Shown one piece after another: positions 37,993 to 63,674 of a stretch of DNA of 64,000 bases. The notes beneath the pieces are model-generated. The model saw nothing but the letters and a program-made list of their open reading frames with translations, did not search any database and was not told the origin of the DNA. The stretch comes from Ceratobasidium sp. AG-K (lineage: Eukaryota; Basidiomycota; Agaricomycetes; Cantharellales; Ceratobasidiaceae). Position 1 is the stretch's first letter, and every line of letters starts with the position of its first letter. The DNA is taken from assembly GCA_037039685.1 (NCBI GenBank), contig JAWNGF010000009.1, positions 992,001 to 1,056,000 of the forward strand, written 5' to 3'. A program made the translations under genes and the position numbers.

Positions 37993-39140
37993 TTACGTTT
38001 CAAAATACCCATCCGTCAATACGACCGCTTTCTTCTGCCAAACATACTTTGGAGGCGCTCCTCCACCTTCTGCCTCGGATGACCGAAGGCCAAGAGACAC
38101 TGTGGAAAGAATTGGCTCCGCATCTGGCGGGGCGCGTGTTCGATCGATAAGTGACATTGAAGCGGGATCAAATGAAACACTATGCGGAAACATGACTGGT
38201 TGGAAATCAAGTAAAAGAAGTTCCATCTTGGCCATTTGGTTCCATTTATAGGCTTTGGATATGATCGAGGCAAGGGATTGTTCGTGTTTGGAGGGGATGT
38301 ATGCAGCACCCCCGTAAACAGCAGTCAAGAATGGGAGGAGCACATTGTTCACCAGCCCAGTGCGGAGCGAATCGAGCCACCTATGTACCGTCGTTGGAGA
38401 GAAGCCGGATTGGCCAGAGGCAAACGAAGATACACGCCATCGCCCACTCATCACTTGGGGCTCTATAGACCGAATCAATAATAAAATCACATATGGCGGG
38501 TCAACTTACCTCGACGCCTAACCAATTCATACATGCGTGACATGCATTCATTGTCTGATGCGTTCATTAACGGATTGAATGGGTGAAATATGTGAACGTG
38601 CAATTCCTTGTTGATCAGAAACTGGAGTGCGAAATCCATAAACTCCGCTATTGGTCTTCCTGCTCCAGACGCGGATTCGATGAGAGATGGGTTGGCCCCA
38701 TATCTCCCATAGAGTGCCCGTTCAACTCCCACCATATCCCGGACATCCAGAGAAGTATTGATGGCGACGTCAGTACCCAGAGCGCACAGATTGGCCAAGT
38801 CCTCGTTAATGTCTCGACATAGATTATCGATATCTCTGTTGATCGACAGAAATTGGGCGGTAACTTCTCCAGGATCTTTGTCATCCGTAACCTGGAAGTG
38901 AGTCCGTATGAGCACCGAACCGGCCTTGGAGCGCCGGATGGCGCGCTGTGTTTCTTCAATCTCCCGTCGAACTTCGCGTTGTCTTTGTGGAGACGCTTGA
39001 GCTTGGATGTTGCTCAGTTCTTCCAATCGAGACTTGTAGCGATTGATTTCGTGGCCCATATCCGATAGTTGTTGACCCATCTTCTCGTTTCGGTATTCCC
39101 AGTATTTATCGCGTTTTGACGGACTCATTACCAGAAGCAT
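37993..39140 (-). CDS. Coiled-coil module protein A, without G domain
   Basis: Exons 38510-39140 and 37993-38462 give 366 residues ending GYFET with TAA. The start ATG at 39140 (MLLVMSPSKRD) is used; ATG at 39128 is an alternative. A coiled coil (MGHEINRYKSRLEELSN...VRREIEETQRAI) leads to PIAEFMDFALQFLINKEL and IFHPFNP, then across the intron E|PQVMSGRWRVSSF. LLLLDFQPVMFP and ILSTVSLGLRSSEAEGG then lead to the C-terminus KAVVLTDGYF. These blocks are shared with the GTPase genes at 45239, 53820, 56182 and 61476 and with protein B. No P-loop or G domain lies upstream. Function unknown. Confidence 0.82.
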
Positions 39141-39907
39141 AGTTTCTCCTGCTAGCGCTTTTCTGTCGCTCTAGCATGGTATTTGGCTAGGAAAGTAAAC
39201 ACACTTACGGGATTCCGCCTTGGGCGTGTCTGGCGTATCTGTCGCCACCTTCGAGCTACTCGAGTTTCGTTTTTTCGAGCCACTCTAGTGAGCAAACCCG
39301 TTAAAGCTATCCGACAAGCTTGTGGACCAGCATACCGAGACTTTGCGGCGTCGCTGCCCAAGAATTTTGACTACCATGATAGTATTTTGTCGACAGCTAC
39401 GAAGTTAGGACTAGCCAGGCGTCGATCCAGTGCGTAACAATGGTGGTCAGTGATAAACAATTGAAGCAAACACGCGTGTAGCGCCTGTCCGTCAGACGCG
39501 AGGCTGTGACCCCAGGTTCCTGAGTAGGGTTTGCTTCAGTGGAGCACCTTCCATACCGAACACGACCGGACAGAGTGGTGCCCTCGTGGCTGGGATTGCC
39601 TCGTGTGGGAATTTTAATACCGCAAGTAGCCACCAGTCCTCATTTATATCAAATTTGAGAGTTGCCCCAAGTCGTATCCGTATTTAATATTCCGGAAACT
39701 TTTTTAGCGTAAAATCGTGAGCGACTGGATTTTATAGTGTAGAGGACAAAGGCGATGTCTCAGGGCTGGCATCGGGCCGGTTTATCATGGCCAATATTGA
39801 CTGGCAGCGCATACATTCAAATCGTAAAATGTGAGCCGATGCGATATTCTACATAGACAGCACGTTGCAAAAATTTACATCGCTTGGACAATTGAGCTTC
39901 GCTAATT
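39141..39907. other. Intergenic, module proteins A and B
   Basis: Upstream of A and downstream of B. I looked for a hidden G-domain exon (GxxxxGK, DTPG) on the minus strand and saw none. Confidence 0.45.
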
Positions 39908-41598
39908 TTACGAGAAGTACTGGGCCGTTAAAACTTTCGCCGGAATCTGGGTCGTGTGCTCTGCACCTTGAGCCCCCCGTGCCCGAGAGGAATATAGCCC
40001 GAGTTTACTCGTTAGCAAAATGCCCTCAGGACCGGGTATTTTTTTCCCTGGTCCCTCGAGCTGAGCGCCTTCTGGGTCAAATGGCGAGCCAGGAGGGGCA
40101 AAGCCCGGCTGAAAGTCAAGCATAACGACCGAGGTTTTGGACAGGTGGGTCCAATCCAATGCGCTCTGGAATAGCTCCGTGATAGCTCCGAACGCCGTTC
40201 CAATCGGTTCTGCGTACGCCTCCGGTTTGTAGACGTGGTCGCACAACGGGGTCAAGGCATTTTGGCAAAATTCTTGAGCGATCGCTTGAGCGGTCGCTTG
40301 AGGGTAACAACCATGCAAATTGATTGCGTTAAATGTCGAGACCCGCCAGCGACCGGCGATTGTCTGTGATTCTGGAAGTGAGAGGTATGAGGATGGTTAG
40401 AAACAGATTCATTGATGACGGACCTTGTTTCCTAACAGTTCGGTGCATATTCAGGAACAGGTCGTTCTCTGATCGGCCCACTAAGGCTGGATGAAATATG
40501 TTGGGCCCACAGATACGCTCGACCAGCCAATCGTTTAGGAGAGCTCGACAGCCAAAGTCAATAAAATCTTCGGGATCTATGGGGAGTGTGATCACGCCAA
40601 CCTCTCCGAGCTTTTTGCCCGATGATCGTTGTCGTAGAATTGTGACCAAGTCTACGGTCTTTAGTTCACGAATCGCTTGGGAATCGGACAATTTTTCGCC
40701 AAGATCTCGAGAAATATCTTCAACCTTCCTCGTAATTCGTCGGAACTTTTCAGTGATGGTGGACACCTCTTGCATGTCGTTGACCTGCATGTGTTTGCGA
40801 ATGGACAACACTTCTTGTCGATACGGGTCGCTCTCGTAGTATCGGACTTTGTCTTCAAGGGAAGCAAGGTTGTCCTCTCGTTCCTTGATATCGGCGAGCA
40901 ACGACATGACCGTAGCCTCGCGTTTGCCAAGTTGTTTTTCCCACTTGCGGAGGGATTCATCGATGGCTTCATATTGACGGGCTTCACCGTCGCGTCGATG
41001 ATTGTTGTTTTCGTGCCCAGTAGAGCGCCCATTGGGGGGACGAGAGACTCGGGGAGCCGGGGATTCGGTGGATTTTCGTGGGTCGGGGCCAGAGGCAGGC
41101 GGCTGGGTGTGTTGTGCTCGCACCTGGGCGGGAAGCGCCGGGGAGAGTTGGGGAGGCGCCGGCGGAAGGTGGGGAGGCGATTGGGTCGAGGGTTGGGCTT
41201 GATATTGCGCCTGTGGTTGAGCTTGAACTTGGGGTAGTGGTCCATGTCCTCCCGAACTGCGGTCATCGACAGTAGGAGCCCTACTCTGAGACTTTCGCCC
41301 AGGGGGTGGCGGACCGGCCTGAGGGACCGGCGATGCGGCAGTTCCCGTACTAGATGGCTCAAGAGGCGGAAGTGCGGGCTGTTCCCTCTCTGTGCGTGGC
41401 GTGAGTTGCTGTAAAGAGGCAAGGTCAGTCCTGGCTAACCTGAACCAAGGTTCAGACACGTACCGGACTCGCTGTTGGGCGCGTAGCGAGGCCTGGGCGC
41501 GCCGAAGGCGAACTACCAGGGGCCGCTGGGGACGAAAAATGTGTGCTCATAGCAGCCTTGGCTTGATCCTTGACTTGTTTGAGAGCCTGCACCACCAT
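39908..41598 (-). CDS. Coiled-coil module protein B, Pro/Gln-rich, without G domain
   Basis: Exons 41464-41598, 40424-41408 and 39908-40371 give 527 residues ending LTAQYFS with TAA. The first ATG in frame is 41598 (MVVQALKQVKDQ); the more upstream GTG is preceded by a stop. About 150 residues are Pro/Gln-rich (PQVQAQPQAQYQAQPSTQ). A coiled coil (ESLRKWEKQLGKREATVMSL) follows, then DPEDFIDFGCRALLNDWL, IFHPALVG, and after the intron E|SQTIAGRWRVSTFN. SVVMLDFQPGFAPP and LTSKLGLYSSRARG complete the shared module. It is divergently placed from the Hsp70-like gene at 41937 with 338 bp between starts. Confidence 0.82.
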
Positions 41599-41936
41599 CG
41601 GGCGATGCGGTTTCTCGGCTGGATTACTCGTGGTGGCAAAACCGGGGGTTGTCGCTGGGAAGAATGAGTTCACCAAGAAAGATGCAGGCGCTAGTGGTCG
41701 CCACCTAGACACTGCCTCGACCGAAGAACTTGACACGAGGTTCTATATGCATGATCTTGGATAAATGGGGGCACAAAGGGTTGGGCGAGACCGAGAATAG
41801 GTGATCCAGACACAGCCAGGCCCTGACAGGAGCGCGCTAATCGGTATTTGCAAATAGCCACTCGCCCACCCGCCCTCTCCCTCCATATCACCCTCACCAC
41901 CCTTTCTGTCATCATCCAGCAAAACTCGAGCCCAAT
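41599..41936. promoter_or_regulatory. Divergent promoter between module protein B and Hsp70-like 1
   Basis: 338 bp between two divergent ATGs. The last 60 bases before 41937 are C/T-rich (CCCTCACCACCCTTTCTG), as often seen in basidiomycete promoters. I find no clear heat-shock element (alternating GAA/TTC). Confidence 0.4.
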
Positions 41937-44343
41937 ATGAAGGTTTTCGCAGAAGGTCCCTGGAACCGCCCTGCTAAGATTATTCTTGGAATCGATATTG
42001 GAACGACGCAGAGCGCCGTCGCGTTTGCTCATCTCTACCCTGGTGTGTGCTGCTGTCACGCGAGATATTGGACCTACAATTTTACATGTTATTATAGGCG
42101 GTCCACAATCTCTCCATCGTGTGACAGCGTGGCCAGGCCAGGAAGCCCAAAAGGGGGAGAGCAAAATCCCGACCCTCGTTTACTATGATAACGACAACAC
42201 TGTAGGTGTAATTCTTTTCATCCCTCCTTCTTAGTCTAATGAAAATACTTTGGGAAGGCCGTATCATTTGGCGCAGAAGCATTGAAGCCAGAGACCTCGG
42301 AAACGGCTGAAGACGAAAAGTGGCAACTCGCTCGCCACTTCAAACTCCACCTCCACCCTGAATCGATGAAGCAAAAACATAACTTGAAAGCACAACGTGA
42401 GTAACTCTAAACTTTGTGCCCGGTTTATTAAACTGATTACTGCTCCGTATAGCCTTGCCCGTGGGCGTCTCACTACTCAAGATCTATACCGACTTCATGG
42501 TCTATCTCTTGAGGCACACCAAAGACTTCTTCGAGTCTCGAATTATCGACGGCCAGCGCGTCTGGAGCGACCTCCACAAAGACATGACGATTGTCCTGAC
42601 CCACCCGAACGGCTGGGGCGTCAAGGAGCAAAACTTTATGCGCAAGGCCGCCGTTGCCGCGAAATACGTACCTTCGGACAGGGCCATCTCCCAGATTCGA
42701 TTCGTGAGCGAGGCGGAGGCTTCCGTTCATTTCTGCATGTTCCATGGCGACCTCCACAACCGCCTCAGCGTAAGCGCTTGCTACCTGCCGTTTTGACCGC
42801 CGTTGCTAACGGCGCGCGACTCGTAGCCAAACACCACCTTTGTCGTTTGCGATGCTGGAGGATCTACTATTGATACCACCGCATACTCGGTCAAGTCTGC
42901 ATCCCCGATACTCGAGCTTGAAGAGAAAAAGGCATCCGCATGTGAGTCCGAGCGCCATTGTGATGTGGATTATACTCACAAAGGCCATTCATCTAGGCGT
43001 ACAAGCAGGAGGCGTCTTTGTCGATATGGAGTTTGAAACTCACCTTACTCGTATTCTGAATGGATTGGAGCAATTAGATCACGAAGAACGTATCGACTAC
43101 ATCAAGAAGGGTGTCAAGGACTTTGAGGGAACAGCCAAGAAGGCTTTCGAGAGCGCGGACTCTGAACATCGCATCGACTTGGGTGCAGGGCGTTTGACCA
43201 AACCCGAGCTCAAGATTCGACGAGGAACGATTACATTGGACGGGTAAGTCCCGAACGTATTGCCTAATTGTTGTATTTAACTTTTTTTTGCCAGTGCGAC
43301 TATCGAACCCTTCTTCGATAACTGCGTCACCCAAACCGTGGCGAGCGTTCGCCAGCAGATGTCCGGGCTGACCTGCAAGGTGAGACGTTCAGCGCCAATC
43401 ACCGCGCCCCGCGCTAACTTTAAAACGGCAGCATATACTCCTTGTGGGCGGGTTCGGTGACAGCCTCTACCTGCGCAAGGCCCTCATCTCCGAATTCAGC
43501 AAGAATGGCTGCACAGTCAACGTCGCCAATGATTCCACGTACGGATATTCCCATGACCCTCGTTGACACTGATTTTCCAACTGATCGCATGCAACAGGGC
43601 CAAGGCGGTTGCCGACGGAGCTGTGATCTGGTGTGCCAAACTGAGCGTCATCAGCCGTGCCACCCGGGTGCCATACGGAGTTGAAATCAACGACGCGTAC
43701 GATTCGAAAAAGGCCGACCACTCTGGCCGAACCGTACATAGGCACGACGCTGGGTACGACTATGTTACTGGCAAATGGTCTCAGATTGTTGGCAAGGTAT
43801 GTTCCTTTTTGGGTCATTTGCGTATTGCCACTCACGTGGCGCATTCAGGGTGTGGTTATGAATGCTGAAGGGGCCGTGCGCGAGTCATACTGGCGTTCGT
43901 ACAAGACTGCATCCCCGCGTCTGAATAACTTCAAGGTCACAATGTTCGCGTTTAACAACGAGAGGGAGAATCCCAACGACTGGTTGCGTGACAAGAATGG
44001 TTAGTAATACCCGCGTTTGGCTCGCATCGGCCCTAATACCATGCTCGTATAGGCCGTATCAACAGGGGATTCGAAGAGATCTGCGAAGTCGAAGCTGATT
44101 TGAGCGGCATGCGCCAGGCATTGAAGAAGAAGACTGGACGAGATGGTGATTACTGGTACCTAGACTTTACTGTTGCGTTGCAGTTCGGGGGCACAGAGCT
44201 CCAAGCGTTCGTAGAATGGGAGCAAGATGTGAGTGTATCCTCCACTTGTGCGCATACATACTAACACGTCGTGCATCTAGGGGGAGATTCGTACTGGCCC
44301 CGCTTCGATTTTGCCGAGCGCACTTACAAATGCGCGAGTCTGA
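41937..44343 (+). CDS. Hsp70-12-like actin-fold ATPase 1
   Basis: Exons begin 41937-42042, 42098-42201, 42258-42396, 42453-42769 and 42827 onward; the last exon ends SILPSALTNARV with TGA at 44341-44343. Phosphate 1 is IILGIDIGTTQSAVAFAH; phosphate 2 is FVVCDAGGSTIDTTAYS; the adenosine motif is HILLVGGFGDSLYL. Other landmarks are LTHPNGWGVKEQNFM, FVSEAEASVHFC, KKASACVQAGGVF and DGAVIWCAKLSVISR. The chain ends soon after FGGTELQAFVEWEQ, so there is no peptide-binding domain and no EEVD tail, as in the HSPA12 group. Residues for ATP binding look intact. It is likely cytosolic; substrate unknown. It is the only plus-strand member of the 38-64 kb cluster. Confidence 0.9.
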
Positions 44344-45238: not shown

Positions 45239-47326
45239 CTATTGATACATACTCTCGGTCGCAACCATGGCCTTGCACACCACTGTACTCTCAGGTAGCC
45301 TCCCACCACCAATCGCCCGCGTAGAGATTAAGCCGAGGGCCAGAGTGCACAGGATTTTGTCTACCTTTAGCCCACTTCGCGGCTCAAATTCTTCCTGCCA
45401 AGAAGGCTCGAAAGGTGAAAGCGGTTGGTAATAGGATTGGTAGAAATCCCCCAGCACAACAACATCGGCTTTGAGCATTGCATTCCAGTCCCAAGCGGTC
45501 TGGACGAGCTCCTTTAATTGATTGAATTGTTTATGCTCGAAATGGGTGTTGTGGTCCTCTCCGAAGAAGGAGACGATGAGGGTTGCGAAACCGCTCCCGA
45601 AAAAATCATTGGTGATCTTGTTAATAAGATGAGTTGTCGCGTCTGGACCTTCGCGATAGATGCTTTTAAAGCAGTTCGCGCGCCATTTGCCCGACGAAGC
45701 CTGGGGCTCTGAGTGCGAAACATGCTTTAGTACGGGCTAACAAGCATTAAAATGATCAAATACCTCGGAGTTGTATTTCATCATACATTAGCGCAATAGT
45801 TTTGTTGTGCGAAGGGTCGACACCGGGATGGAAAGGGCTGAATATGCGCTTACAGAGGTGAGAGCAGAGCAAGTAACGGATAGAATAATCGAGGAAGTCT
45901 TCAATCGCCATCCCTATGCCGGATGATGAAGTCACGAGGGAGGCTTGTCCGTCAATATGGGTAAATAATTTTTGGAGAGCGGGTAGGTCTTGAGCGTCCA
46001 AGGTCGTTACATCTCCGGGATCTTTGTCGAACATAGGTTTCACGTGTTTGTCAACTAGATATGCCGCAAACGAGCGACCGATGTCGCCGATACGACGGTT
46101 CAAATCTTTTAAAGCTTGGATGACCTCGCTTTGTTCAATATTTTCCTGGAGCGAAAGTTGAGATCGTAGGGACGAGCATTCTACTCGAGATTGCTGAAGC
46201 TTTTGTCGAAACGCGAGTGCTTCGTACCGCTGTCCAGCAAGCTCATTGTTGAGTTGTTTGTAGGCAACCTCGTACTGCTTAGCGAACAGCTGTTGCTCGC
46301 TCAATGCTGCCTCGAGCGAAGCAATCTTGGCGCGATATGGTCGCGCTGCTAGATCTTTCTCGCGCTGCAACAGCAACTTCATCGAGTCGGTTTCGTAGTA
46401 CCCCAAGCTAGCCTCGATAAAGCTCCGTAGATCGCGAGGAGGATCGCGCTGGATTCGTAGCCTGATAGGGTCCATAGTCGCGTATCTAGCCAATACGTTC
46501 GTGATGTCGCTTTCGTCCAGGTTAGAGACCATACTACGACCCACGTGCTCCTGAATAGGCCGGAAGACCGAGTCGACCAGCTTTTCGATGGACGTAACTA
46601 CTGAGGCCGAGTGCCCGGAACCGCCGGACCCGACTGGAACCACAAGGATAGTCAGATGTGGGAGACAGGACTTTCCAAGGATTCCTGATAGCACTTCCAT
46701 GGTCTGCCTTAGAGCTCTACTTTCAACCGAGTCGCCAGCGTAGTGGATGTATATAATCCCGGTGATCCCAGTGTTAAGCTTCCTGCAATTCCTGGAGTCA
46801 GTTTATGTAGATTGGTCGTTAGAAATAAAACATACTTGTCTAGTAAATAAGCGCAAATCTTTTCGAAAACTTCGAGGTTGCTTCGTTCTGGGTCATCGAA
46901 TCCCGGGGTGTCAATCAACTTGAATTTAAAGCCAGCCACCAACGCCCGCTTGGAGTAGACGTCTTTGGTATTGCCTGTCAGGTACGGCTCGGTACCCATG
47001 GGTGCACGGGCAGCATTGATAAACTAATGCACTACAGTAAGGAACCCGATTTTCTATGCAGGGGGAAGATAGTAGACGTACTTGCGCTTTCGGCGACCCG
47101 AAGCGGCCGAGGATTCTTAAGAAGAACGTCAATCATGGCTTTCATTGAATGCAGATATCGAGAGTTGTACTTACAGAACGGAAATGGGTGCTCCGTACTG
47201 TTCATTATGCTCTATTCTGACTGGTTCGGGCTCACCAGTCAGATACGTGCCCTCCTGCTCTGACAGAGTAGATTCGGACCCCACAACGGAAGAAATCCGT
47301 GTAAAGGCTCCATCAAGGAGGCCCAT
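45239..47326 (-). CDS. AIG1-like G-domain protein C with coiled-coil module; degenerate P-loop
   Basis: Exon 1 47175-47326 (MGLLDGAFTRISSVV), exon 2 47082-47115 (34 nt), then an exon starting at 47023. The G1 position reads ILGRFGSPKAQFINAAR: the invariant Gly before Lys is Pro and Ser/Thr after Lys is Ala, so nucleotide binding is doubtful. G3 is KLIDTPGFDDPERSN. ITGIIYIHYAGDS corresponds to the YLHR-like strand of AIG1/GIMAP-type domains; no TKxD motif is seen (LTILVVPVGSG instead). The C-terminal module has a long coiled coil (LRSQLSLQENIEQSEVIQAL), EDFLDYSIRYLL, IFSPFHPG, and after an intron EPQA..GKWRANCF. VVVLGDFYQSY and LGLISTRAIGGG precede the end TESMYQ. Likely cytosolic. Confidence 0.82.
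47082..47115 (-). other. 34-nt P-loop micro-exon of gene C
   Basis: Exon bounded by an AAG acceptor and GTACGT donor; it encodes ILGRFGSPKAQ plus the last base of the preceding Leu codon. Confidence 0.75.
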
Positions 47327-50550: not shown

Positions 50551-50854
50551 TTCGGAGCTCTACGAATGACAGCGTGTGCAGAGTTTCGTAGGCTCACACT
50601 GGTGGTGGCTTTCGGCAGGTGGAGGACGCTTGCCTTAGCCACGCATCACATGACGTGGGTGCCACCACAACATACGCAAACAAAGTATAGCAACTGAGGG
50701 GGATTATGGTGAGACAAACTTGGACTTCAAGGTCAAGCAGTAAACTAGTTATTCAAGGTAAGCGGCAAATGTTCGATACAGTGCTGGATCAGTGAATCAT
50801 CGCGATTTTCGTCCGTAATGTACGGCGTGATTCCTTCTCCTGCTGAACGATAAT
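50551..50854. other. Intergenic, Hsp70-like 2 and 3
   Basis: 304 bp between tandem paralogs; presumed promoter of Hsp70-like 2. Nothing else seen. Confidence 0.4.
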
Positions 50855-53284
50855 TCAAATTTCAATTGCGTCTTCTGGCACGATGACTACCGGAGAACTA
50901 CGAGTAATGCCCTAGAGTGAATAGGTCAGTGATCTGGGTACACAGACTTCCATAAAAAGACACTAACGCTCTCTTTCCATTCCAAGTATGCTTCGAGTTC
51001 GGTGCCGCCAAAACGGATACAAACATCGCAATTCAAACTCCAGTACGCTCTGCCATGCATTCCTGTCCTCCTCTCCAGCGTAGCCTGGATGTTATCCAGC
51101 CTAGCACTAATCGTGCAGACTTTTCGGAAATTTGGCCTCATAACCCCTAGATTGGATATACTCAAGTGTTAGATCAAGCGGTGTCCTGGCACGGTGGAAA
51201 TACTCACCAAGTTCTTCCCATGCCCACGAAGGCTCGTCGTCACCGGTATAAGCGAACAGTTCCATGCTCAGTGAACCGGATTCTAAAGTAGGCGTGCTGC
51301 GTAGCACAATGAATTCTTTGCGGCAGATTGCCTCGGAATCAAGTGCCACACCCTGGAAAGGATTGAGCAAACGTTAAATCCAGGGTGCTCGGGACGGACC
51401 TTGTGTACGATTTGCGACCATGCTCCTGGAATAATCAACTGGCCGTTGGCGGAAGTAAAAGCTTCCCGCAATTGATGATCCCGCAACCAAGGAATGAATG
51501 GCACAGCGCATACCGCACCAAACGAGGAGCGGGGGGCGCGCGAGGAAACGCTACTAATTGTGTTCCAAATCACCGCGCCATCCGCAACGGCCTTGGAGCT
51601 GTTTTGCGATGTCGGTGAGCTATATGAAGAAGACATAATGTAGCGGCTCACGTAGAGTCATTTGTGATTGTAACCTGGCACCCTTGGGCTCCGTATTGCT
51701 TTTTGAACTCTTGGCGCAGGAAAGGACTATCTCCAAACCCACCTACAAGCAAGATGTACTTGCACTAGCATGAGAATGATTGTCGGTTCAGGAGGCTGAA
51801 ATAACGTACGGGGACAGTCGCGTCCTTGACTTGTTGGTCCACACTACTAATGATTTCTTTGGAGCATACCTCGAAGAATGATTTCATGATTGAGCTTAAA
51901 CAGACATTAGCACAACCGTATTAGACCTAAAGCAACACTCACCCAGGCAAGGTCATTCGACCTCGGCGTGTTCGAATCGATGTGTTATTAAACCTCGTAT
52001 GAGCAACAGTGATTGTATGCTCATTTGTCTCATCCTGAAACGCACGCTTTGCATGGCTCTCAAAGTCTTTAACTCCTGCTTTCGTATACTCCTCGATATC
52101 ATTAGAGGACAATCCAACGCTCGTAAGTACCCTCGCCAAGTACTTCTTGGCCTCGGCATCGACGAAGATTGCCCCTGCTTGCACGCCTATTCCTCTCGTA
52201 TTAGTGAATTCGCAGAGAGGCTGCGACGTACTCACAAGCTGATGCCCGTTTCTCCTCGAGCTCAAGAATTGGATGGGTCGACTTGACCGAATAAAGTGTA
52301 GTGTCGACAGTGGAGCCTCCAGCGTCACAAACTAGGAAATTGGTCCCAGACTATCACGGAGTTACGTCATGGCCATCGTACTCATGTACTAAGTAAAATA
52401 GGTGCGTACCTGCAGCCGGCTTCCCAGATTAGTATGGTAAATGCAGAAATGTACCGATGCTTCTGCCTCGGTCACGAACCGAATCTTCCTTGGCGCGCTC
52501 TCAGCTTGCGCGAAACCGGCGTCTACAGCTGCTGTTCGGAGAAAGGTCTGTTCGCGAATGCCCCATCCATTTGGGTGAGCAACCACAACCTCCATTGTAG
52601 GCCGATAACGCTCCCAAATTTGCTTTCCGTCCAGGATACGATCTTCAAAGTATGCTTGAGTGTGTTTCAGAAAGTATCCCAAGAAGTCGGAGTATATCCG
52701 CCGTAAAGGAACACCGGGTGGCAACTCTACAATAGTGGCATTATAGTGGTTAATCTGATACGCTCAAGTGTAATCTCGGTCTTGTAACTCTTACCATCCA
52801 ACTTCAAATCATGTTTGGCCTTCATATCGTTCGGATGCATGTGCAACTTGAAGTATTTTGCTAAAAACCAACCGTTGTCCTCGGCTTCCTCTTCGGCGTC
52901 GTATGAAAGCGCTTCGGCGCCAAAATACCTGGCCTGTTCGTGACACGTTGATTATCAAGGCCGTGTATATCAAAGATTGTATGCCGTACCACCCCGTCCG
53001 TATCGTACCAGACGATAGTTGGTATCTTTCCTTGCTGATTGTGAGCCTCTTGCCCTGGCCAGCTCGTGACGCGATGTATAATTTGGTCCCCACCTGCGGC
53101 TGATGCGTTAGACGCATGGAAAACACGTAGCGCGTCTACCGCTCTCACCATTTTGAAGGTACGTAAAGGCTACTCCACTCTGCGTTGTCCCAATATCGAT
53201 TCCGATGACGATTTTGCTTTCTCCCTCCCACGGACCACGGAAAGGTTTGGGAGTTGAGTCAATAGATCCTCGTAGTGAAGCCAT
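50855..53284 (-). CDS. Hsp70-12-like actin-fold ATPase 3
   Basis: The start at 53284 gives MASLRGSIDSTPKPFRGPWE; the last exon reads GITRSSPVVIVPEDAIEI with TGA at 50855-50857. Motifs: IVIGIDIGTTQSGVAFTY, FLVCDAGGSTVDTTLYSV and YILLVGGFGDSPFL. Also AHPNGWGIREQTFLRTAAV, RFVTEAEASVHFCIYHTN, KRASAC|VQAGAIFVDAE and VADGAVIWNTISSVSSRAP. The end region CDVCIRFGGTELEAYLEWKE matches its neighbours. It has no EEVD tail or peptide-binding domain. The head-to-tail arrangement with gene 2 and nearly identical motif spacing show recent duplication. Possibly a signalling or stress ATPase, by analogy with the HSPA12 group; unproven. Confidence 0.88.
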
Positions 53285-53819: not shown

Positions 53820-55925
53820 TTATTCGTACATGCTTTGAGTTGCAACTGTCGCCTTGCACACCGTCGTATGTTGAGGACGCTGACCGCCCCCTATTGCCCG
53901 GGTAGAGAACAAACCTAGAGCTAGTGTTCCTAAAATTTTGTCAACTTTGACACCTCTTCGAGGCTCAAATTCTTCCATCCACGCGGACTCGAAAGGAGTG
54001 TTGGGATCGTAGCACGTTTGATAAAAATCACCCAATACGATCACTTCCCCCTTGAGCATCGCATTCCATTCCCAAGCCATCTGAACAAGTTGTTTCAGCT
54101 GGTTGAAATGCTTTTCCTCGAGTTCTATCATCTGTTCCTTCCCAAAAAAAGACTGGATAAGCACCGAGAAGTTGCTATTGAAGAAATCGCGAGTGATTCT
54201 ATCAATATGCTCTGCAGTGATGTTTGGTGTTGCAGGACGGTAGATGCTCTTGAAACAATTAGCACGCCACTTGGCTGAAACAGCCTGTGGCTCTGGATTT
54301 TGACTTGATATCAGTTTAGTCGACGGTGAGTAAATTGAATCAAATACCTCGAAGCTGTATGTCATCGTACATGATGGTAATCGCCGCATTATGGGCGGGG
54401 TCGGCACCCGGATGGAATAGGCTAAAGATCTGCCTAGAGAGGTGGATACAGAGCAAACACCGGAGGGCATAGTCAAAGAAGTCTTCGACCATCATTCCCG
54501 CCCCGTTGTCAGAGGCAACAAGGGACGATTGACCCTCAACGTGACCGAATAGCCCTTTGAGCGCCGATAGATCTCGTCCATCCAAAGTGGTCACGTCTCC
54601 GGGATCCTTTTCAAAAATATGTTGCACATATTTGTCGACCAAGTACTCGGCAAAAGAGCGCCCAATGTCGTCGATATTACGGTTGAGGTCTTTCAGAACC
54701 TGAACTATCTCGCTCTGCTCAGTGTTTTCTTGCAGTTGAAGTTGCGAGCGCAAAGAAGAGTATTCGGCTTGTGTTTGTTGGAGTCTTTGACGAAGAGATT
54801 GGTTCTCCTCTCGCTCCCTTGCCAGTTCAGAATTGAGTTGCCGAGACGTGGTTTCATAATGTTTGAGGGCCGCCTTGTGGTCATCAAGAGAAATTTCAAG
54901 CGGCGCAAGTTTTGCGCGATAATGTCGCGCGGCAGAGTCCTTTTCGCGGTCAAGAAGAAGCTGTACTGAATTAGCTTCGAAGTAACCTAAATTGGCTTCA
55001 ATCTGGAGGCGAAGGTCGCGGGGAGGTTCGCGCTGAATATGGAGTCGTATCGGGTCCTTGGTGGCGTACCACTCGAGGATATTAACTACGTCACTCTCCT
55101 CCAGGTTCGAGACCATGGTGCGAATCTCTCCCTTGCGGGGCGACTGGAAGATAGAATAGGCAACAGCCTCTATCTCTGCAGCGATTCTGGCGGAATGCTC
55201 TGATCCCGTAGCATGTAATGGGACGACGAGAATAGTGAGACGCGAGAGCAAGTTTTTGCCGAGTATTACCCCAGACAGAACCTTCATGATTTGCCTCGTT
55301 GACCTGGCTTCGGGAGAATCGCCGGCATAATGGACGTAGACCACACCGCATATGCCATCGTCGCGCTTCCTGAAGTTGGCCGTACTATATTAGGTGATCC
55401 TTGGGCATGCAAATGAACTCACTTGTCAATCAAGTAATTGGAGATTTTTTCAAGCACATCAAGATTGCCACTTTTGGGATCATCTAAACCCGGCGTATCG
55501 ATCAACTGGAATTTGTATCCAGATATCAAGACCTGCTTGGGGGCGACATCGACATGGGCGTCCAGGGCCAATTCCGAACATGTACCTGCCGATGCGCCCG
55601 CAATATTAACGAACTAGCAATCGTGCACAAATTCGGTTGAGAGTATCTGGCGGGTCGGAGGCGAGAACCACATACCCTAGTTTTCGACGACCCAAACCGC
55701 CCGAGAATTCTTGTGGAGGATTAGTGTTACATAACGGAGTGAAAGTGGGAGAATACAGATTACACACAGGATGGGAATGATACGTGTATGTCGCTCTCGC
55801 GGATCGCTTACTGCTGGTTTGGCCTCGGTTTCTCCCTCACGTAAGGCAAGAGGTACCTCCACTGACGAACCAAAAATAGCCCCGCCTACCGCCCCCGACA
55901 CCCGTCGCAGTGTGTCACGGAGCAT
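53820..55925 (-). CDS. AIG1-like G-domain protein D with coiled-coil module; altered P-loop
   Basis: Exon 1 55768-55925 (MLRDTLRRVSGAVGGAIFGS), exon 2 55676-55709 (34 nt), then FVNIAGASAG. The G1 region is ILILGRFGSSKTRFVN: Lys-Thr is kept but the Gly before Lys is Ser. G3 is QLIDTPGLDDPKSGN, followed by GVVYVHYAGDS. The C-terminal module has a coiled coil (LRSQLQLQENTEQSEIVQVL), EDFFDYALRCLLCIHL, IFSLFHPGADPAHN and EPQAVSAKWRANCFKSIYRP. VIVLGDFYQTCYDP, LALGLFSTRAIGGGQ and the end ATQSMYE (TAA at 53820-53822) complete it. It is the closest relative of gene C. Location likely cytosolic; hydrolysis competence uncertain. Confidence 0.84.
55676..55709 (-). other. 34-nt P-loop micro-exon of gene D
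   Basis: Acceptor ACAAG before AATTCTCGGGC and donor GTATGT after ACTAGG; it encodes ILGRFGSSKTR. Confidence 0.75.
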
Positions 55926-56181
55926 TCTGATCTCGGGTCACGTTTGTGAGTCGTGGCAAAGTGGTTTGCTCTGGACGAGGAAAAAGCCCGAATATAAGAG
56001 TAAATGTCACGTGCACCTCGATGACCATATTGCCTGGCTGGTTCTCAGCAGCTTAGTTGTTGAAAAGCAACTTGACATGAAACAGCCCGAAGTTAAAATC
56101 AACAGATTCAAACACACATTATTATTGCCTCGCTCGGTTACTCGAATATACATAACTTTGTACAACCACCTGATGTCAACC

Positions 56182-58289
56182 CTAGGCATACGTGTTGTCT
56201 GTAATAACCAGCGGCTTAAGAATGACGCTCTCTTCTGGAGGCTGCCCCCCACCCAGAGCTCTCTGAGAAATCAAGCCTAGGGCAACAGTACCTAATATAA
56301 CCTTTGCATGAGGTTTGCGAGGATCCGACTCAAATTCTTCCATCAGCCTCGCATCGAAATCCGAGCCAGCAACGTATGCGATCTGTAAGAAGTCACCGAG
56401 CACGATGACTTCACCTTTCAGCTTTGAATTCCAATCCCACGCCCTGGTTGTCAACTTTTGCAATCGACCGATGTGTTGTATTTCCAATGTTATGTCGTTT
56501 TGGCCCAGGAAGATTTCAATAAAGGGGGCAAGGTAATCACGCAGAAACGCTTGCGAGAGCCCCTCTAAAAAATCCGCCATCGAACCAGACGACCCCGGTT
56601 TATAAATACTCTTGAAAGTACTCGAGCGCCATTTGCCTGCGGCTGATTGCGGCTCTGTATATTTCCGTTTGTCAACGCGTGCAACTGCGGTTTATGAGGA
56701 ATCTACATTACCACGGTATTGAATATCCGCGTACGCGGTTAGTAGAGCTGAGCTCAAAGATGAATCGATAGCGGGATGGAATGGTCGGAAGATTGCTGTG
56801 CTAAGGAAAGTGCAGAGAAAGGTACGAATGGTAAAATCCAAGAAGCTCTCCACGTCCATTCCTACGCCCTCAGATGACGCGATCAAGGATGGAACCCCGT
56901 CACTGTGCCGGAACCATTCCTTAAGCCTAGGTAAATCACGGGCATTTAGGGCAGTGATATCGGCGGGATCCTTTTTGAAGACGGCATGGACGAAATTGTC
57001 GGTTAGGTGTTCCGAAATCAGACGACCGATCTCGTCAATTTCACGGTTTATATCTTTGAGCTCTTGAATAATCTCGCTCTGCTCTGAGTTATCCTGAAGC
57101 TGAAGCTGCGAGCGAAGAGATGCATATTCCTGCTGCACTTGTCGGAGCTGTTGACGCAGCACTAGTTCTGCTTCTTGTTGGCTGGCTCGAAGCTTCTCGG
57201 CCTCCCCGTAAGCCGTGGAGAATTGATTGAGCTGAAGTTCTTTATCGTTCAACTGGAGCTTGAGTTCCTGAAGTTCCGACTTGTGATGATGCTCAAGATC
57301 GTTCAAGCGTCGATGCGCCGACTCTTGCTCGCAGTACCACATTATGTCTTCGAGACGGGCTATAGTTTTGCGCGGGCCGTTATCCAAAGCAAATTGTTGG
57401 ATTGGAAGTATGATGGAATCCATAGAGGCGTAGGACATTACAGCCTTCAAGAACGCGGATCGATTGGAACTTGGTATCGCTACTTTGGCGCCTCCAGCGC
57501 ATGCTGCATCAAAGGCCGATCCGGGGTGTCGCAACTCACCAGCAATTACCCTGGGGTCTAACCCTCGAGGGTTAACCTGGGATACGAAAATTGTAAGCCG
57601 AGAGAAGTCCTCTCCGACGAACAAGTTGGACAACAAGGTCACATTTCGTAGTAGGGCCCTGCTTTGGAGTGTATCGCCAGCCTGATGGACATATATAATC
57701 CCGTGAATTCCTTGTTCTGCCGTGGGACTGGAGAACCAAGATATCGTTAGGAGTTTAACAAGTTTTATGCATGTACTCACGGACGCAAGAGATATTTCAT
57801 AATCTTAGTGAACACGTCAATATCACTCAATCCCAAATTGTCGAATCCTGGTGTATCGATCAATTTGAACTTGACGCCAGACAAGGTAATCCGTTCCGAC
57901 ATAACATTCATCGTTTTTTCGTACTTTGGGAGATTGTCGCTCCACTCCGATGGGAGAGTGCACGTGTGATCAATAAACTAGGCGTTGGTGTAAGCTCAAC
58001 GTAATAACAATTGTAACAAGGTTTCCTACGTATGTTTTCCCGGCACCAGAACGACCTAGCACACTGCTTATATTGAGGCACATCCAAAAGTAATATAGAA
58101 GGGCACGCACAGTATAGATATTGGACTTTGATGGGTTGGCGTTCGTTGATCATGAGTGGCTGATTTATTAATCGGATTAGATGCTGGTTGCTTGGATGGC
58201 TGCTGGCTCGACGATGCCGTAGGGCTCGATGGAATATATTTATGCACGGTATTCGAGACTGCATCGGCAAACTCCTGGATTAGACCCAT
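56182..58289 (-). CDS. AIG1-like G-domain protein E with coiled-coil module; intact P-loop
   Basis: Exon 1 58111-58289 (MGLIQEFADAVSNTVHKYIP, then a Ser/Gln/Pro-rich tail), exon 2 58030-58063 (34 nt). G1 is ISILVLGRSGAGKTYFI, a complete GxxxxGKT. G3 is KLIDTPGFDNLGLSD; IHGIIYVHQAGDT and LTIFVSQVNPRG follow, again without TKxD. The coiled coil (LRSQLQLQDNSEQSEIIQEL) precedes VESFLDFTIRTFLCTFL, IFRPFHPAIDSS, EPQSAAGKWRSSTFKSIYKP, VIVLGDFLQIAY and LGLISQRALGGGQPP. It ends TDNTYA with TAG at 56182-56184. It starts 257 bp upstream of gene D in the same direction. GTP binding is likely from the P-loop; target unknown. Confidence 0.86.
58030..58063 (-). other. 34-nt P-loop micro-exon of gene E
   Basis: With acceptor CAG before TGTGCTAGG and donor GTAGGA after ACATAC, the exon is 34 nt and encodes VLGRSGAGKTY. 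Confidence 0.75.
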
Positions 58290-59810
58290 GTGGCTAGTTA
58301 TTTAACCAATAGGTCGACGTTGGTATGTGGCTGTGTGTGGAGAGTTCAATAATAACATGACTCCACGTTATTGAGCCCATTATCACGTGATGCTCTTTTT
58401 TTTGGATACATCTTTAACGAGCTACATGAACACGAGGTCAAACCGCTCGGTGCCGCAAAAGCACAAGACCGAGAAAACAAAGGTACAAAAGTACATGTCC
58501 ACACGGAAGCAAGGCAGGCATACGTGATGCTCTTTTTCCTCTAAGAGACACATATTTAACAAACTACATGCACACATGGACAAACCGCTCGGCCACAAGG
58601 ACAACGACTGCAGGTACAGAGAGAGGGAAAGAGGCCACACTGAGGTTTTTACACAGGAGGTAGAGGCGAGAGGGGCGCCCGAAGGTGGTACAAAGTAAAA
58701 CAAAGACCAGGGTACATGTACATCGAGAAAGCTCGAGCAGGTTACATTAACTAGCTAATGAGGGCAGTGGAGTTGGAGATGAAGGTGAGGATGGCACTGA
58801 GGCCAGTGTCTGAACCGAACAGGTCGGTTCACGCGATGCTCTTTGTGCCAGTGTCACCTTGCTCCAAATACTCCATGGGCTGTACTATAACTGAAAAACT
58901 GAGTCACTCACTATTTTGCAGGTAGGAACGCGTATATGAAAATATATGCATACGTTGTGGTCAATGGTCCCCTGCGCCCCTCTCAAGCCCACAAAGCAGC
59001 GAAATTTTCATTTGGTGGAGCTCAATGGAGCACACTTTGTAGGATAGTTAGATTGGCTTTGTATGGTTGCATTTTGGAATTGAGTTCACTTTTCACTCAG
59101 AGCGACAATATTCACTTTTCCTTGAGCTCTGGGCGGACAACTTGGTTGGGAGTGCAGCCAATATATGCATGCCGCCAGAGTCTGGCCACGACTTTACATG
59201 CAATCAACTGATTGTTTTAGGTAAGCTTTGGTCCCCATTCACACTCAGCCCTCCAGATGTGGCCTCAGTGTACAACACACAGACACTACCACTGCGGCCC
59301 AAACCTGTTCACTAGCCGATAGGTTGTGGGGATATAAATGGCATGCTGTTCGAAAACAAGATTAGGAAGCCTTTTGCACCCAAATTTGGGTGCATTTAAC
59401 TTACGTATAACTGTGCCCGCTTGAATCCTCATATCTCAATGTTTGTTTTGTAGAGGTCAATTTTTGTCCTTGTCGCCTACGGTTCATACAATCATGTCTT
59501 GTGAAGCTGTATAGCTAAGTGATGGTTACATTCACGTTTGTTGCTAGTGTATGACACATGTTTCGTTAGTTTTCCAGTCTGAGGTGTGTGGGTGAGACAG
59601 TTGGCCGCTCTGCCCCAAGTCTGGGCAGGGCGCAATGGCCGTGGCGACCAAGGGCACATTCCTTGAGACCAATGCAGCCGAAAAGGGAAACTGAGACAGC
59701 AATGCTCTTTGCTTCTGCTCTCAAGGGGTTCAGATCCCATATTACGGTCAATATGATAATTCTTTCCCTATATTGTGATAGTAAAATCGGACATGGAATG
59801 CAAAACATAT
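58290..59810. other. Intergenic with direct repeats, upstream of gene E
   Basis: Contains the direct repeats at 58385-58592. A plus-strand stretch at 59050-59310 (for example CMPPESGHDFTCNQLIVLGK) looks protein-like but matches no family I recognise and has no gene structure; it may be a TE relic. Confidence 0.4.
58385..58592. repeat. Two direct repeats of about 66-71 bp
   Basis: Copies at 58385-58450 and 58522-58592 both start ACGTGATGCTCTTTTT, share TTAAC and ACTACATG/GCTACATG in the middle, and end AAACCGCTCGG. A partial third copy (ACGCGATGCTCTTTG) is at 58831. The spacing of the two full copies is 137 bp. Confidence 0.6.
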
Positions 59811-59812
59811 AT

Positions 59813-61402
59813 ACAGTATGCAACAAAATTATACAGACTTTCAGCACTTGTAATGTATACGTGTCATATCAATGGAGCCAGCGATCCAATAAATATATAA
59901 AATTAAGTAAAAGGTATAGAGGCATGAGAAATACATGATAGAAAAAGAACGACATGATTTGGTTAGGAAATGGTCGAGTTATGAGCAAAACAAATCATAG
60001 GGGTTCTCTGTACAATTTAGTAATGGGAAAAATGGCAACCTCGATCAGTAGCAAATAGCACCTCCTTTCCGTTTCAAAACCAGTGCCATCCTCTTTGGCA
60101 TACTCTCAATCAATTTCTGACAATATTCAGGTGCAAACCTGTTCCATTTGTCTTGAACTCGCTCCCAGAGCTTGAGGATCCCGTTGGGCAAGTTTTTGTA
60201 GGTTCCAAGATGCCTTTTCAGCTCTGCCCACAGATTTTCAATTGGGTTGAGGTCTGGTGAGTATGCTGGCCACTCCAGTACCTCCATTCCAGAATCTTCA
60301 AACCACTTGAGACAAATTTTAGCCTTGTGGGCACTTGCATTGTCTTGTTGGAAAATCACCATCTCTGGCTCCAACCCTAAATGCTCAACACTGTCGCTGA
60401 GTTCTTCCTTCAAAATCCGCAGGTATAACTCCTTAGTGAGTGTTCCGTCTATCCTGCACCTGATCCCGGTTCCCTCATATCCTATACACCCCCAGAACAT
60501 CAAAGACCCACCACCAAAATTTCCTGTCTCCACCGTCAGCCTCTCAAACAGCTCCTTCCCTCCACGAACCCAGCCCCATTTGACACCATCGGACCCCAGA
60601 CAATTGATCTTTGTTTTGTCCAACCATAACACCTGTTTCCAATCTTCTATTGTCCAATGCTGGTGTGCCAGGGCAAAGGCAAGTCACTCCCTCCGAGCAC
60701 GTGCGGTGAGCTTTGGTTTCTTGACCTTCTTCATGGCCTTAAGACCAGCGCTTTTCAAGGCACGTCAAACTGTTTGAGGATGCATGGTGACCCCCGTAAT
60801 GTTTGACAGTAATTGCATGGCCTGGGTAGCCAATACTGAATTTCTGTGGGTGACAAGATGCACAGCATGGCGGACTGCAGTTGGGCAAAGTTTGCGGGGC
60901 CGCCCACTTGCAGGCTTTGGGAGGTCAGGACAATGCTTGGCATGTACACTAGTCACTGTACCATGTGCAACGCGGCAATCAGAGACAATTTGAGTGACGG
61001 AGTGTCCAGAATCAAGTCCACAGAGGATAGAATTGAGCTTATGCTCAGAGATTGCTTTGGGCATGATTGATGTGAGAAATGATTGATTTAATGTCTTGTA
61101 GGAACCATTACAATATTTATATACCCCCTAGGCTGGTCAGAAACACTTTACAGTGTTTTGAGGTGGTGGCCTTGCTGCCCGTGAAACACGTTACAAAATT
61201 GTACACACATACTGTGAGTTTTGTTCGATTTATTACTCCGCCGTTTCTGCATGGAACTCCGCGCAACAAACTGGAGCCGTTATCTCACATGTTTTACTAC
61301 CCTTCTGAGTTTTTCATTCAATTATTAGGGGTTTTGGCTGGAGTGTACAACTGAGACATTACAAAGGCGCCCGGCGTTTGTACAAATTTGTTGCAAACTG
61401 TA
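59813..61402 (-). mobile_element. Tc1/mariner-type transposon, 1.59 kb, with TIRs
   Basis: Terminal inverted repeats: left TACAGTATGCAACAAAATT (59813 on) and right, complemented, TACAGTTTGCAACAAATTT, continuing imperfectly to a shared GTAATGT at about 50 bp. TA dinucleotides flank both ends (59811-59812 and 61403-61404). The minus-strand transposase frame spans 60045-61064. Size, TA duplication and ends fit a Tc1-like element inserted between GTPase genes E and F. Confidence 0.88.
60045..61064 (-). pseudogene. Tc1-like transposase with two in-frame TGA codons
   Basis: The N-terminus MPKAISEHKLNSILCGLDSG and HTH-like parts (VTQIVSDCRVAHGTVTSV; KPASGRPRKL) are followed by the catalytic core. 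That core has VLWLDKTKINCLGSDG (first Asp region), MVIFQQDNASAHKAK (second Asp) and AYSPDLNPIENLWAELKRHL (Glu), matching the Tc1 DD34E pattern. The frame ends RKGGAICY. Two TGA codons interrupt an otherwise open frame, at about 60765 (HPQTV-TGA-RALKSAG) and about 60684 (RARRE-TGA-LAFALAH). Both sit where relatives have Arg and are explained by CGA to TGA. The rest is remarkably intact, so the copy is young but inactivated unless TGA is read through. Confidence 0.85.
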
Positions 61403-61475
61403 TACGCAAATTACATAATGGGTGCAAGAGGAACCTTGAGCTACCAATATGTACGCCAGTGAATACCTGCTCTCC

Positions 61476-63674
61476 TCAGTGAAACAGCATCGCCTCGCTG
61501 ACAATCGACGCTTTGCGTAAAATGGCTGGCTGTGGCTCCTGGTTGCTACCCACGGCGAAATACTTGATTAACCCGAGTTCGATGGTTGCAAGGTTGGATT
61601 TGACTTCAAGGTATCCGGTGGTGCTGTTGGATTTCTTCTTGGGTTCGGACATATAATCTGGGATAAAATCGCCTCCATATGGATAAGCAACGGCTTGAAA
61701 ATCCCCGTGAAAGACCACGCCGCCTTTGACCAACTGATTCCAGCTCTCGGCCGTCGAGATCAATTTGGTGAGCATTTCCTGGTGCTCTCCCACCAGTAAT
61801 TTGCTCTTCGGGGCATCGACAAAGATACCTATCAGAACGTATAGAGAATCGACGATCATGGGGTGGATTGTCTTGACACAGTTCGAGCTGCTGTAGCTTG
61901 AACTTTTGGAAATCGAATTAAACGAATCTTTTCTCCAGCGACCCGCCACGGATTGAGGCTCTATGGTAATGGCTAAGTAAACCCCCTGGAGAGACCTAGG
62001 CGACACTGACCTTGACGTGTCATCTGCTTGTAGATTTTCTCAATGAAATCATTTTGAACTTCTTGTTCTTTGTCGGCAAGACTGGGATGAAAGGGTCTGA
62101 ATAATCGCCTGTTTAGCTGTTCACAGAGTATCGCCCGAATGGCGTAAAACAGGAAATCTTCGAGATCTGGAAATGAACCTGTCGACGACTTGACTAGTGA
62201 AGGTTTATCCTGCTGATGCCCGAATAAATTCGATAAATTTTGGAGCCGCGAAGGCTCTAGATCTTGGATTGAGATTAGATCTCCTGCGAAATTATCGACT
62301 ATGTGTTCCGATATCGATTGGCCAAGCTCCTCGATCAAGCGGTTGATGTCGCTGAATGTTTGTGTGATTTGACCGTGTTCCGCAATGTCGCGGTCCTGCA
62401 GATGGGAACGAAGAGATGCATATTCGACTTGAGTTTGTTCGAGCTTGTTCTTCAGCTCCCTAATTTGATCTTTGTATACGGATTCAGTCGTGCTATTATC
62501 GACATCTAACGCAGACTGCTTCAATTCCTCCCCTAGACCCGGGCTATGCTCTGTAAATATTAGCCAACATTGATTAACTTTCCGATATGATGGCATGAAC
62601 GTATCAGTACCTTTATTAGACCCTTCATCCTGCGAATGCACAGAATTCGATGGCTGGGTATCGTCTTTGGGCTTTTCCTGGACGGATTGCCTCGCTAGCT
62701 GATCGCCTCTGCGATCGTCCGCATCGTTGTCAAGCCGCGTTTGAAGATGCTTGGCAACATCTTCAATGCTCCACGTTTGAGCAGTTCCGTTTTGTGTAAA
62801 GTCGGTGGCCTTGTCTTGAGCGTAGAAGCGCTGCGGATCGAGGGAAGCGCATGGCCGAACTATCTCCTCAATCGATCGGCGATCCAACTTGTAAACCAGC
62901 ACCTTGGGGTCCTGGACGTGGCCGTAAAACGAGCGAAAGGGCGAGCCTTCCGACATGATTGATTGACGCAATGTTGCTTCCGGTTGCGTACTGGCCGTTT
63001 GTGGCCGAACCACAATAGTAACACGATCCAGGAAGTCTTCCCCGATCAAGGCACCTAGGAGTTGAAGGTTCCTCCGGAGTGTTTGGCTGCGCAAATCGTC
63101 GGTCGCAGGATGAACGTAGATAATTCCCACCAATCTCATGGGGAGACGCTGCTGCCTTGATTCAAGAATGTGAATCATTGCATAATCAAGCTACGTAGTT
63201 GACTTACGACTGGTCCCCAAGATATTCGACCAACTTCAATAGTGTATCTTTTACATGTGTTGGGTCGCCAAAGCCTGGAGAGTCAATGAACTTGATCTTC
63301 TTATCCCCAATCCAGTAACGATTCGATAATCGAAATTCTGTAGTGGGGCTAAGATTTGTTACTCGCAGCTGCTTGAAGTCGTTGGCCACGAAATTGATCA
63401 GCTAAGGGATGATAATAACATTTGGGCTTTGTGCTTATCAAATCCTGACTGGTCCCACGTACAGTCGTCTTTCCACATCCACGAGGACCAAGCAGTCTAT
63501 GTATGGTTATATGTTAAGTGATACTGTTCAACAACGAAATATTCTCGGGACATACAAAATGTTAGCTACTGCAATGCCTGCATTTGGCTTAGTTTTCCAG
63601 GAACCGCCGGATGGGGTTTCACCTGACGATTGGAGGGCGCCACGGTGACTATCGGTTGAAGAGGTCTTGCTCAT
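61476..63674 (-). CDS. AIG1-like G-domain protein F with coiled-coil module; intact P-loop
   Basis: Exons 63556-63674 (MSKTSSTDSHRGALQSSGET), 63463-63496 (34 nt), 63208-63401, then from 63155 on, with a 60-nt intron at 62551-62610 and one near 61970-62015. G1 is NILLLGPRGCGKTTLINFV, complete. G3 is KFIDSPGFGDPTHVK (Thr to Ser). VGIIYVHPATDDLRS and VTIVVRPQT follow. It has a longer, more polar linker than its paralogs. The module holds LRSHLQDRDIAEHGQITQTF, LEDFLFYAIRAILCEQL, LFRPFHPSLAD, EPQSVAGRWRKDSFNSIS, VVFHGDFQAVAYP and IELGLIKYFAVGS, ending VSEAMLFH with TGA at 61476-61478. It is the most divergent member of the four. Confidence 0.86.
63463..63496 (-). other. 34-nt P-loop micro-exon of gene F
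   Basis: Acceptor ATAG before ACTGCTTGG and donor GTACGT after ACGACT; it encodes LLGPRGCGKTT with the split Leu codon. Confidence 0.75.

What the first reader, a model, noticed from the sequence alone, without database searches (positions are those of the whole stretch)
37993..63674. Interleaved cluster of Hsp70-12-like ATPases and AIG1-like G-domain/coiled-coil proteins
Nine genes in about 26 kb belong to only two families: three truncated Hsp70s (HSPA12-type) and six proteins with a shared C-terminal coiled-coil module, four of them with an N-terminal AIG1/GIMAP-like G domain. Seen directly: motifs, order and strands. Known: AIG1/GIMAP proteins in plants and animals are immune-associated and also occur in tandem arrays. 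Inference: the two families may act together, for example a G-protein scaffold regulated by an actin-fold ATPase in self/non-self or stress response. I know of no described system with this composition.
Basis: partly seen in the sequence, partly recalled or inferred. Interest (0 to 1): 0.9.

Follow-up and report, generated by a model that had tools for sequence, protein, structure and literature searches.

The report
Mixed fungal Hsp70 and GTPase cluster
A stretch of a fungal chromosome carries a dense, intermingled array of two kinds of energy-using proteins, odd Hsp70 chaperones and small-GTPase-like coiled-coil proteins; the same two kinds also sit side by side in related fungi, which suggests, but does not prove, that they work together at an unknown job.

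Summary
The nine genes are there. The three Hsp70s are intact 12-exon genes (602, 607, 610 aa) with a full ATPase domain and predicted SBD-beta, lacking only the alpha lid. Six genes share a coiled-coil/C-terminal module; four of these carry a Toc/GIMAP/septin-like G domain, two with a degenerate P-loop. No canonical G4 was seen in 43 of 43 proteins tested. The cluster runs past the window: 9 Hsp70-12 and 8 G/coiled-coil genes in about 49.4 kb, 16 of 17 on one strand. In this genome all 17 G/coiled-coil loci found lie on one contig within 6.1 kb of an Hsp70-12. So this looks like an old, conserved mixed cluster; the G/coiled-coil family was found only in Ceratobasidiaceae, within a word-based search. 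Joint function, immunity or self-recognition is inference: expression and interaction were not testable. The searches named found no paper describing it.

The parts
37993..39128 (-). gene A: coiled-coil + C-terminal module, no G domain found (362 aa; start codon uncertain)
   Evidence: spliced model; matched by queries B and D
39908..41598 (-). gene B: proline-rich N-terminus + coiled-coil + C-terminal module, no G domain found (503 aa; first exon uncertain)
41937..44343 (+). gene H1: Hsp70-12-like, 12 exons, 602 aa, ATPase motifs present
45239..47326 (-). gene C: G domain with degenerate P-loop (GRFGSPKA) + coiled coil + C-terminal module, 620 aa
48132..50550 (-). gene H2: Hsp70-12-like, 12 exons, 607 aa
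50855..53284 (-). gene H3: Hsp70-12-like, 12 exons, 610 aa (exon 8 is 51652-51764)
53820..55925 (-). gene D: G domain with degenerate P-loop (GRFGSSKT) + coiled coil + C-terminal module, 625 aa
56182..58289 (-). gene E: G domain with intact P-loop (GRSGAGKT) + coiled coil + C-terminal module, 632 aa; strongly diverged from the gene at the matching place of the second copy
61476..63674 (-). gene F: G domain with intact P-loop (GPRGCGKT) + coiled coil + C-terminal module, 658 aa
59810..61404 (.). Tc1/mariner-like DNA transposon between E and F: 29-nt inverted ends (86% complementary), DDE_3 domain; missing from the second copy of the locus

Best explanation
An old, inherited mixed gene cluster of Ceratobasidiaceae encoding a two-family NTPase module that most likely acts together inside the cell. 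SHOWN: intact HSPA12-like ATPases (NBD + predicted SBD-beta, no lid) interleaved with G-domain/coiled-coil/C-terminal-module proteins, the linkage found again in related species, and degenerate-motif members in both families. INFERRED: the G/coiled-coil proteins multimerise through their roughly 110-residue helix, with P-loop-dead members (C, D and kin) as non-cycling partners or caps, in the way GIMAP and septin mixtures do (recalled); the Hsp70-12s bind an exposed segment of these proteins through SBD-beta and use ATP to set their assembly or activity. The faster divergence of the G/coiled-coil side against the more conserved Hsp70 side fits a sensor (G/coiled coil) plus regulator (Hsp70-12) arrangement in stress or non-self surveillance. 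The surveillance role is the weakest step (about 0.25).
For: All 17 G/coiled-coil loci found in the genome are within 6.1 kb of Hsp70-12. Elsewhere 19 of 44 G/coiled-coil contigs carry one of the 120 listed (of 507) Hsp70-12s; 8 of 18 for contigs of 20-200 kb. By locus tag (names) 14 assemblies with sequential tags hold 27 G/coiled-coil proteins: in 6 assemblies an Hsp70-12 is the next gene (12 proteins within 3 tags). Two database proteins fuse the neighbours (P0011 Hsp70 then G; P0025 G then Hsp70). H2, H4 and H5/H6 each group with Hsp70s tagged inside the mixed clusters of R. solani (OPQ81_011669, OPQ81_011679, ACGC1H_005417/005435), so several lineages predate the splits. The P-loop-dead clade C/D includes R. 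solani P0044 (support 100/98). dN/dS of 0.09-0.24 for the six gene pairs tested (H1-H3, C, D, E) shows constraint, not decay. Order G G H G H H G G G H G H H G H H H is mixed, not two blocks.
Against: No expression or interaction data. Linkage can persist without function in a duplicating region. Hsp70-12 arrays also exist with no G/coiled-coil match beside them (C2, C3, C4, C6, C13 and C9:1.78 Mb; 35 of 54 grouped Hsp70-12 matches), so Hsp70-12 does not need the partner. 25 of 44 G/coiled-coil contigs had no listed Hsp70-12; of the 14 tagged assemblies, 3 have the nearest listed one 6, 13 or 16 tags away and 5 (FRC06, FRC09, BN14, RHS03, RSOLAG22IIIB) have none listed near. These gaps are weak evidence because 387 of 507 Hsp70s were not shown and 13 of 44 contigs are under 20 kb. 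No multimer model could be run.
Confidence: 0.5

Rival explanations
1. Neighbourhood only: one founding pair of unrelated genes sat side by side in the ancestor, and repeated unequal exchange in a fast-duplicating region amplified both. They are linked by history, not by joint work.
For: The region is duplicated again on the same contig at about +132 and +212 kb; other DNA of the window is also duplicated (28-29.2 kb at C9:960975, 95%); R. solani AG1-IA is reported to have whole-genome and segmental duplications (PMC9890813, passages read). Hsp70-12 also expands alone on other contigs.
Against: The mixture has survived with the same Hsp70 sub-lineages in several species, and no G/coiled-coil locus found in this genome has left the Hsp70 neighbourhood, although Hsp70-12 itself lies on several contigs.
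Confidence: 0.35
2. Variable non-self recognition (somatic incompatibility) or defence locus: the G/coiled-coil proteins are polymorphic recognition parts and the Hsp70-12s their conserved regulators. (A special case of the best explanation; the odds overlap.)
For: Between the two copies of the cluster five gene pairs have dS 0.015-0.088, but E against its counterpart has dS 0.97 (71% protein identity), with identity already falling in the part of D next to E. Best near-full-length G/coiled-coil hits elsewhere are about 46-48% identical to E, Hsp70 ones 72% to H2. GiMAP-type loci are clustered and respond to immune challenge in corals (PMC3723955, abstract and passage seen).
Against: Whether the two copies are alleles, segmental duplicates or an assembly effect is not known; E and its counterpart show dN/dS 0.18, i.e. 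constraint and not diversifying selection overall. No phenotype.
Confidence: 0.2
3. Assembly artefact: unpurged haplotypes inflate the family.
For: Near-identical copies at about +132/+212 kb, and other intrachromosomal duplicates, also of conserved GTPase genes.
Against: The window genes differ from each other far more than the copies do (C against D 59-64% protein identity), and the mixed cluster occurs in independent assemblies. It could halve the genome-wide count, but cannot create the cluster.
Confidence: 0.03

Closest known systems
HSPA12A/HSPA12B (Hsp70 family 12)
   Same: Divergent Hsp70 ATPase domain; source annotations of relatives; predicted NBD + SBD-beta without lid
   Different: Human HSPA12 sequence was not compared directly; in animals they are not known to me as partners of a G-domain family (recalled)
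AIG1/GIMAP/IAN GTPases (with Toc34/159 and septins)
   Same: N-terminal G domain matching Toc34 and GIMAP2/5/7; clustered genes
   Different: No canonical G4 in 43 of 43, Pfam AIG1 below cut-off in E and F, a long coiled coil and a C-terminal helical + beta module whose named hits were all Ceratobasidiaceae (word-based search)
Fungal NLR/HET incompatibility systems
   Same: NTPase-based, multigene, variable (recalled)
   Different: No NACHT, NB-ARC, HET or repeat domain above Pfam cut-off in the frames and the three full-length proteins scanned (H1, E, F; NACHT and NB-ARC below cut-off in F)

Membership tests
Hsp70 superfamily, HSPA12-like | Hsp70 nucleotide-binding domain with phosphate-1, phosphate-2 and adenosine motifs | tested here: met
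Hsp70 superfamily, HSPA12-like | no alpha-helical lid after SBD-beta | tested here: met
   strands only after residue 430 of the P0058 model; aligned to BiP up to residue 527
Hsp70 superfamily, HSPA12-like | closer to HSPA12A/B than to other Hsp70s | not tested
   only source names; H1 Pfam HSP70 17.4 bits, below the 20.6 cut-off; 0 PDB profile matches at E 0.01
AIG1/GIMAP family (PF04548) | Pfam AIG1 score over the gathering cut-off | tested here: not met
   E 17.4 and F 13.8 bits against 27; F passes MMR_HSR1 (29.5 against 21.9) and, narrowly, AAA (21.8 against 21.2); a few relatives carry PF04548 as precomputed (P0011, P0015, P0018, P0022)
AIG1/GIMAP family (PF04548) | G1 and G3 motifs | tested here: met
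   G1 39 of 43, G3 41 of 43 (7 own proteins and 36 of the 58 relatives); C, D, P0044 and P0023 lack G1
AIG1/GIMAP family (PF04548) | canonical G4 (N/T)KxD for guanine | tested here: not met
   0 of 43 by a pattern search in the expected stretch
AIG1/GIMAP family (PF04548) | fold of the AIG1/Toc G domain | tested here: inconclusive
Functional two-component system | physical interaction or co-expression of the two families | not testable with these tools
   no expression data and no multimer prediction on hand

The most novel reading that the evidence does not exclude
The cluster is a family-specific, fungal two-NTPase surveillance system: fast-evolving GTPase-like coiled-coil sensors, some kept in a hydrolysis-dead form, held and switched by lidless Hsp70-12 ATPases, used in non-self (fusion or mycovirus) recognition; the divergent E interval would be one of its recognition loci.
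Probability: 0.17. Interest if true: 0.88.

Novelty: new variant of a known kind. Interest (0 to 1): 0.62.

Why it matters
Somatic incompatibility is poorly understood in basidiomycetes, with models taken from ascomycetes (abstract of PMC8229728, seen in the listing), and the function of fungal Hsp70-12 expansions is unknown to me. A linked, conserved pairing with a lineage-specific G/coiled-coil family gives concrete gene pairs to test for a chaperone-GTPase partnership, and one interval (E) to test for balanced polymorphism.

Tried and rejected
Rejected: 'truncated Hsp70' (spliced models are complete). Rejected: two tandem blocks side by side (10 runs against about 9.5 expected for 9 and 8 genes at random; arithmetic). 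Rejected: G/coiled-coil family scattered genome-wide. Considered: true Hsp70-GTPase fusion proteins; P0011 and P0025 are more likely gene-prediction fusions of neighbours and are used only as signs of adjacency.

Led nowhere: profile search of the Hsp70-12 alignment against PDB sequences found 0 at E 0.01. Literature searches (titles and abstracts of the listings seen): Rhizoctonia solani + HSP70 + AIG1 (0 papers); HSPA12 + fungi + gene cluster (2); two of R. solani / heat shock protein 70 / gene family expansion (160, 15 listed); HSPA12A + fungal (30, 20 listed); AIG1 + fungi + GTPase + basidiomycete (2); GIMAP + HSPA12 + expansion (3); HSP70 + Agaricomycetes + gene families + expanded (7); four of Rhizoctonia / somatic incompatibility / gene / genome / NLR (387, 12 listed); Rhizoctonia + AIG1 (3). 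None described the cluster. 'Find' in PMC9890813, PMC8028249 and PMC5579035 gave no Hsp70, heat shock or AIG1 passage. Bivalves have an expanded Hsp70 family (PMC8382680, passage); in oyster larvae HSPA12 and GIMAP7 transcripts respond to bacterial treatments, but not described as a pair (PMC7720132, passages).

Limits and dropped rows: 120 of 507 Hsp70-12 hits were listed; contigs are equated by identical length of the longest contig of a protein cluster. One search was given 115 Hsp70 entries chosen from the 135 + 128 matches, and 44 G/coiled-coil entries from the 43 + 21 + 38, some widened by hand; its 54 Hsp70-12 'loci' split and merge some genes, and its 19 G/coiled-coil entries were merged by hand to 17 genes. 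The tag distances were computed for the 9 assemblies with both families on one contig; the other 5 assemblies were counted by hand. One search tested 7 own and 36 of 58 relatives for G motifs; A, B, G8 and the gene at 1183.4 kb (no clear G domain) were left out. dN/dS was not run for A and B. A stretch of the second copy (C9:1164063-1165038) was not held, so B was compared over 588 of 1512 bases. Trees used 47 and 41 chosen rows; F, G17 and H1 are long branches, their places unsure. Models of H4-H9, G7 and G8 come from one guided pass.

Full report
Where it is. The window is contig C9:992001-1056000 of a 53.6-Mb, 17-contig genome. The genome's own species is not known.

Nucleotide motifs. Of 43 G-domain proteins examined (7 own, 36 of 58 relatives), 39 have GxxxxGK[S/T], 41 a G3, none a [N/T]KxD G4. 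C, D and R. solani P0044 share GRFGS(P/S)(K/R) and group together (100/98): an inherited degenerate P-loop, not random decay. Among nine Hsp70-12s, H6 has altered phosphate and adenosine motifs. So both families mix live and probably dead enzymes.

Extent. Outside the window six more Hsp70-12 (H4-H9) and two more G/coiled-coil genes (G7, G8) follow to C9:1,079,415 (ends of these models, above all H5 and G8, are uncertain). Along the contig the order is A B H1 C H2 H3 D E F H4 G7 H5 H6 G8 H7 H8 H9: 16 of 17 genes on the minus strand, and mixed.

Co-location in this genome. Three G/coiled-coil queries give 43, 21 and 38 exon matches, all on C9 between 1.030 and 1.370 Mb. They make 17 loci, each within 6.1 kb of an Hsp70-12 match, while about 0.69% of the genome is within 5 kb of one (lower bound). 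A separate pair lies at 1.365-1.370 Mb (+ strand). Hsp70-12 is not tied the other way: 35 of 54 grouped Hsp70-12 matches are outside this region.

Co-location elsewhere. Equating contigs by length, 58 G/coiled-coil proteins fall on 44 contigs, 19 of which carry one of the 120 listed Hsp70-12s (of 507 found): 8 of 18 for contigs of 20-200 kb, 10 of 13 above, 1 of 13 below. P0011 adds one contig (25,400 bases) because its model begins with an Hsp70 tail. Fourteen assemblies have sequential tags (27 G/coiled-coil proteins; names). In 6 (ACGC1H, OPQ81, FRC07, FRC11, RSOLAG1IB, FRC12) an Hsp70-12 is the next gene; in RSAG8, RhiTH and RhiJN it is 6, 16 and 13 tags away; in FRC06, FRC09, BN14, RHS03 and RSOLAG22IIIB none is listed near. 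Even within the first nine, some proteins (RSAG8_13093, RhiTH_011495, RSOLAG1IB_11617, FRC11_000549, FRC11_014134) have none listed near. The capped list makes these misses weak. In the Hsp70 tree H2, H4 and H5/H6 each group with members of these R. solani clusters, so several Hsp70 lineages were present before the species parted.

Second copy. The span 34.96-58.25 kb of the window recurs, in pieces, at C9:1,159,471-1,182,361, and 58.9 kb onward recurs in pieces at 1,264,659-1,293,802 (92-98% identity; part of the second copy was not held). Other parts of the genome are duplicated too, so alleles, segmental duplication and assembly effects cannot be told apart; R. solani AG1-IA has reported genome and segmental duplication (PMC9890813, passages). 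Five gene pairs have dS 0.015-0.088, but E against its counterpart has 0.97 (dN/dS 0.18), and identity already falls within the part of D next to E. E and its counterpart are nevertheless sisters. This is either an old divergent allele pair or exchange with a lost paralogue.

Mechanism. Shown: the anatomy, the recurring linkage and the constraint. Inferred: multimerisation through the long helix, dead members as partners, control by a lidless Hsp70 ATPase, and a surveillance role. The chief rival is linkage by history alone. The two are not separable with the tools here.

Novelty. Each family is of a known kind; the lineage-specific G/coiled-coil architecture and its recurring company of Hsp70-12 in one mixed cluster were not found described in the papers searched (listings seen, with 'find' in the papers named under Tried and rejected).

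Noticed in passing
window 59810-61404: Tc1/mariner-like element with 29-nt ends and a DDE_3 frame lies between E and F; the second copy of the locus (C9:1265539/1265540) is contiguous there, so the insertion is present in one copy only.
   Followed up: partly
window 55500-58250 against C9:1179.5-1182.4 kb: Identity between the two copies of the cluster falls from about 98% to 71-80% over gene E (dS 0.97 against 0.09 or less in the five other genes tested).
   Followed up: partly
window 28001-29198: 95% identical inverted copy at C9:960975-962181; several conserved GTPase-domain matches of this assembly also occur twice on one contig, some inverted.
   Followed up: partly
C9:1777384-1792451 and C2:104013-119044: A second Hsp70-12 array gives nearly the same matches on two contigs, with no G/coiled-coil match beside it.
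   Followed up: no
window 37116-37909: HIT-domain gene adjoining the cluster; it lies inside the duplicated span.
   Followed up: no
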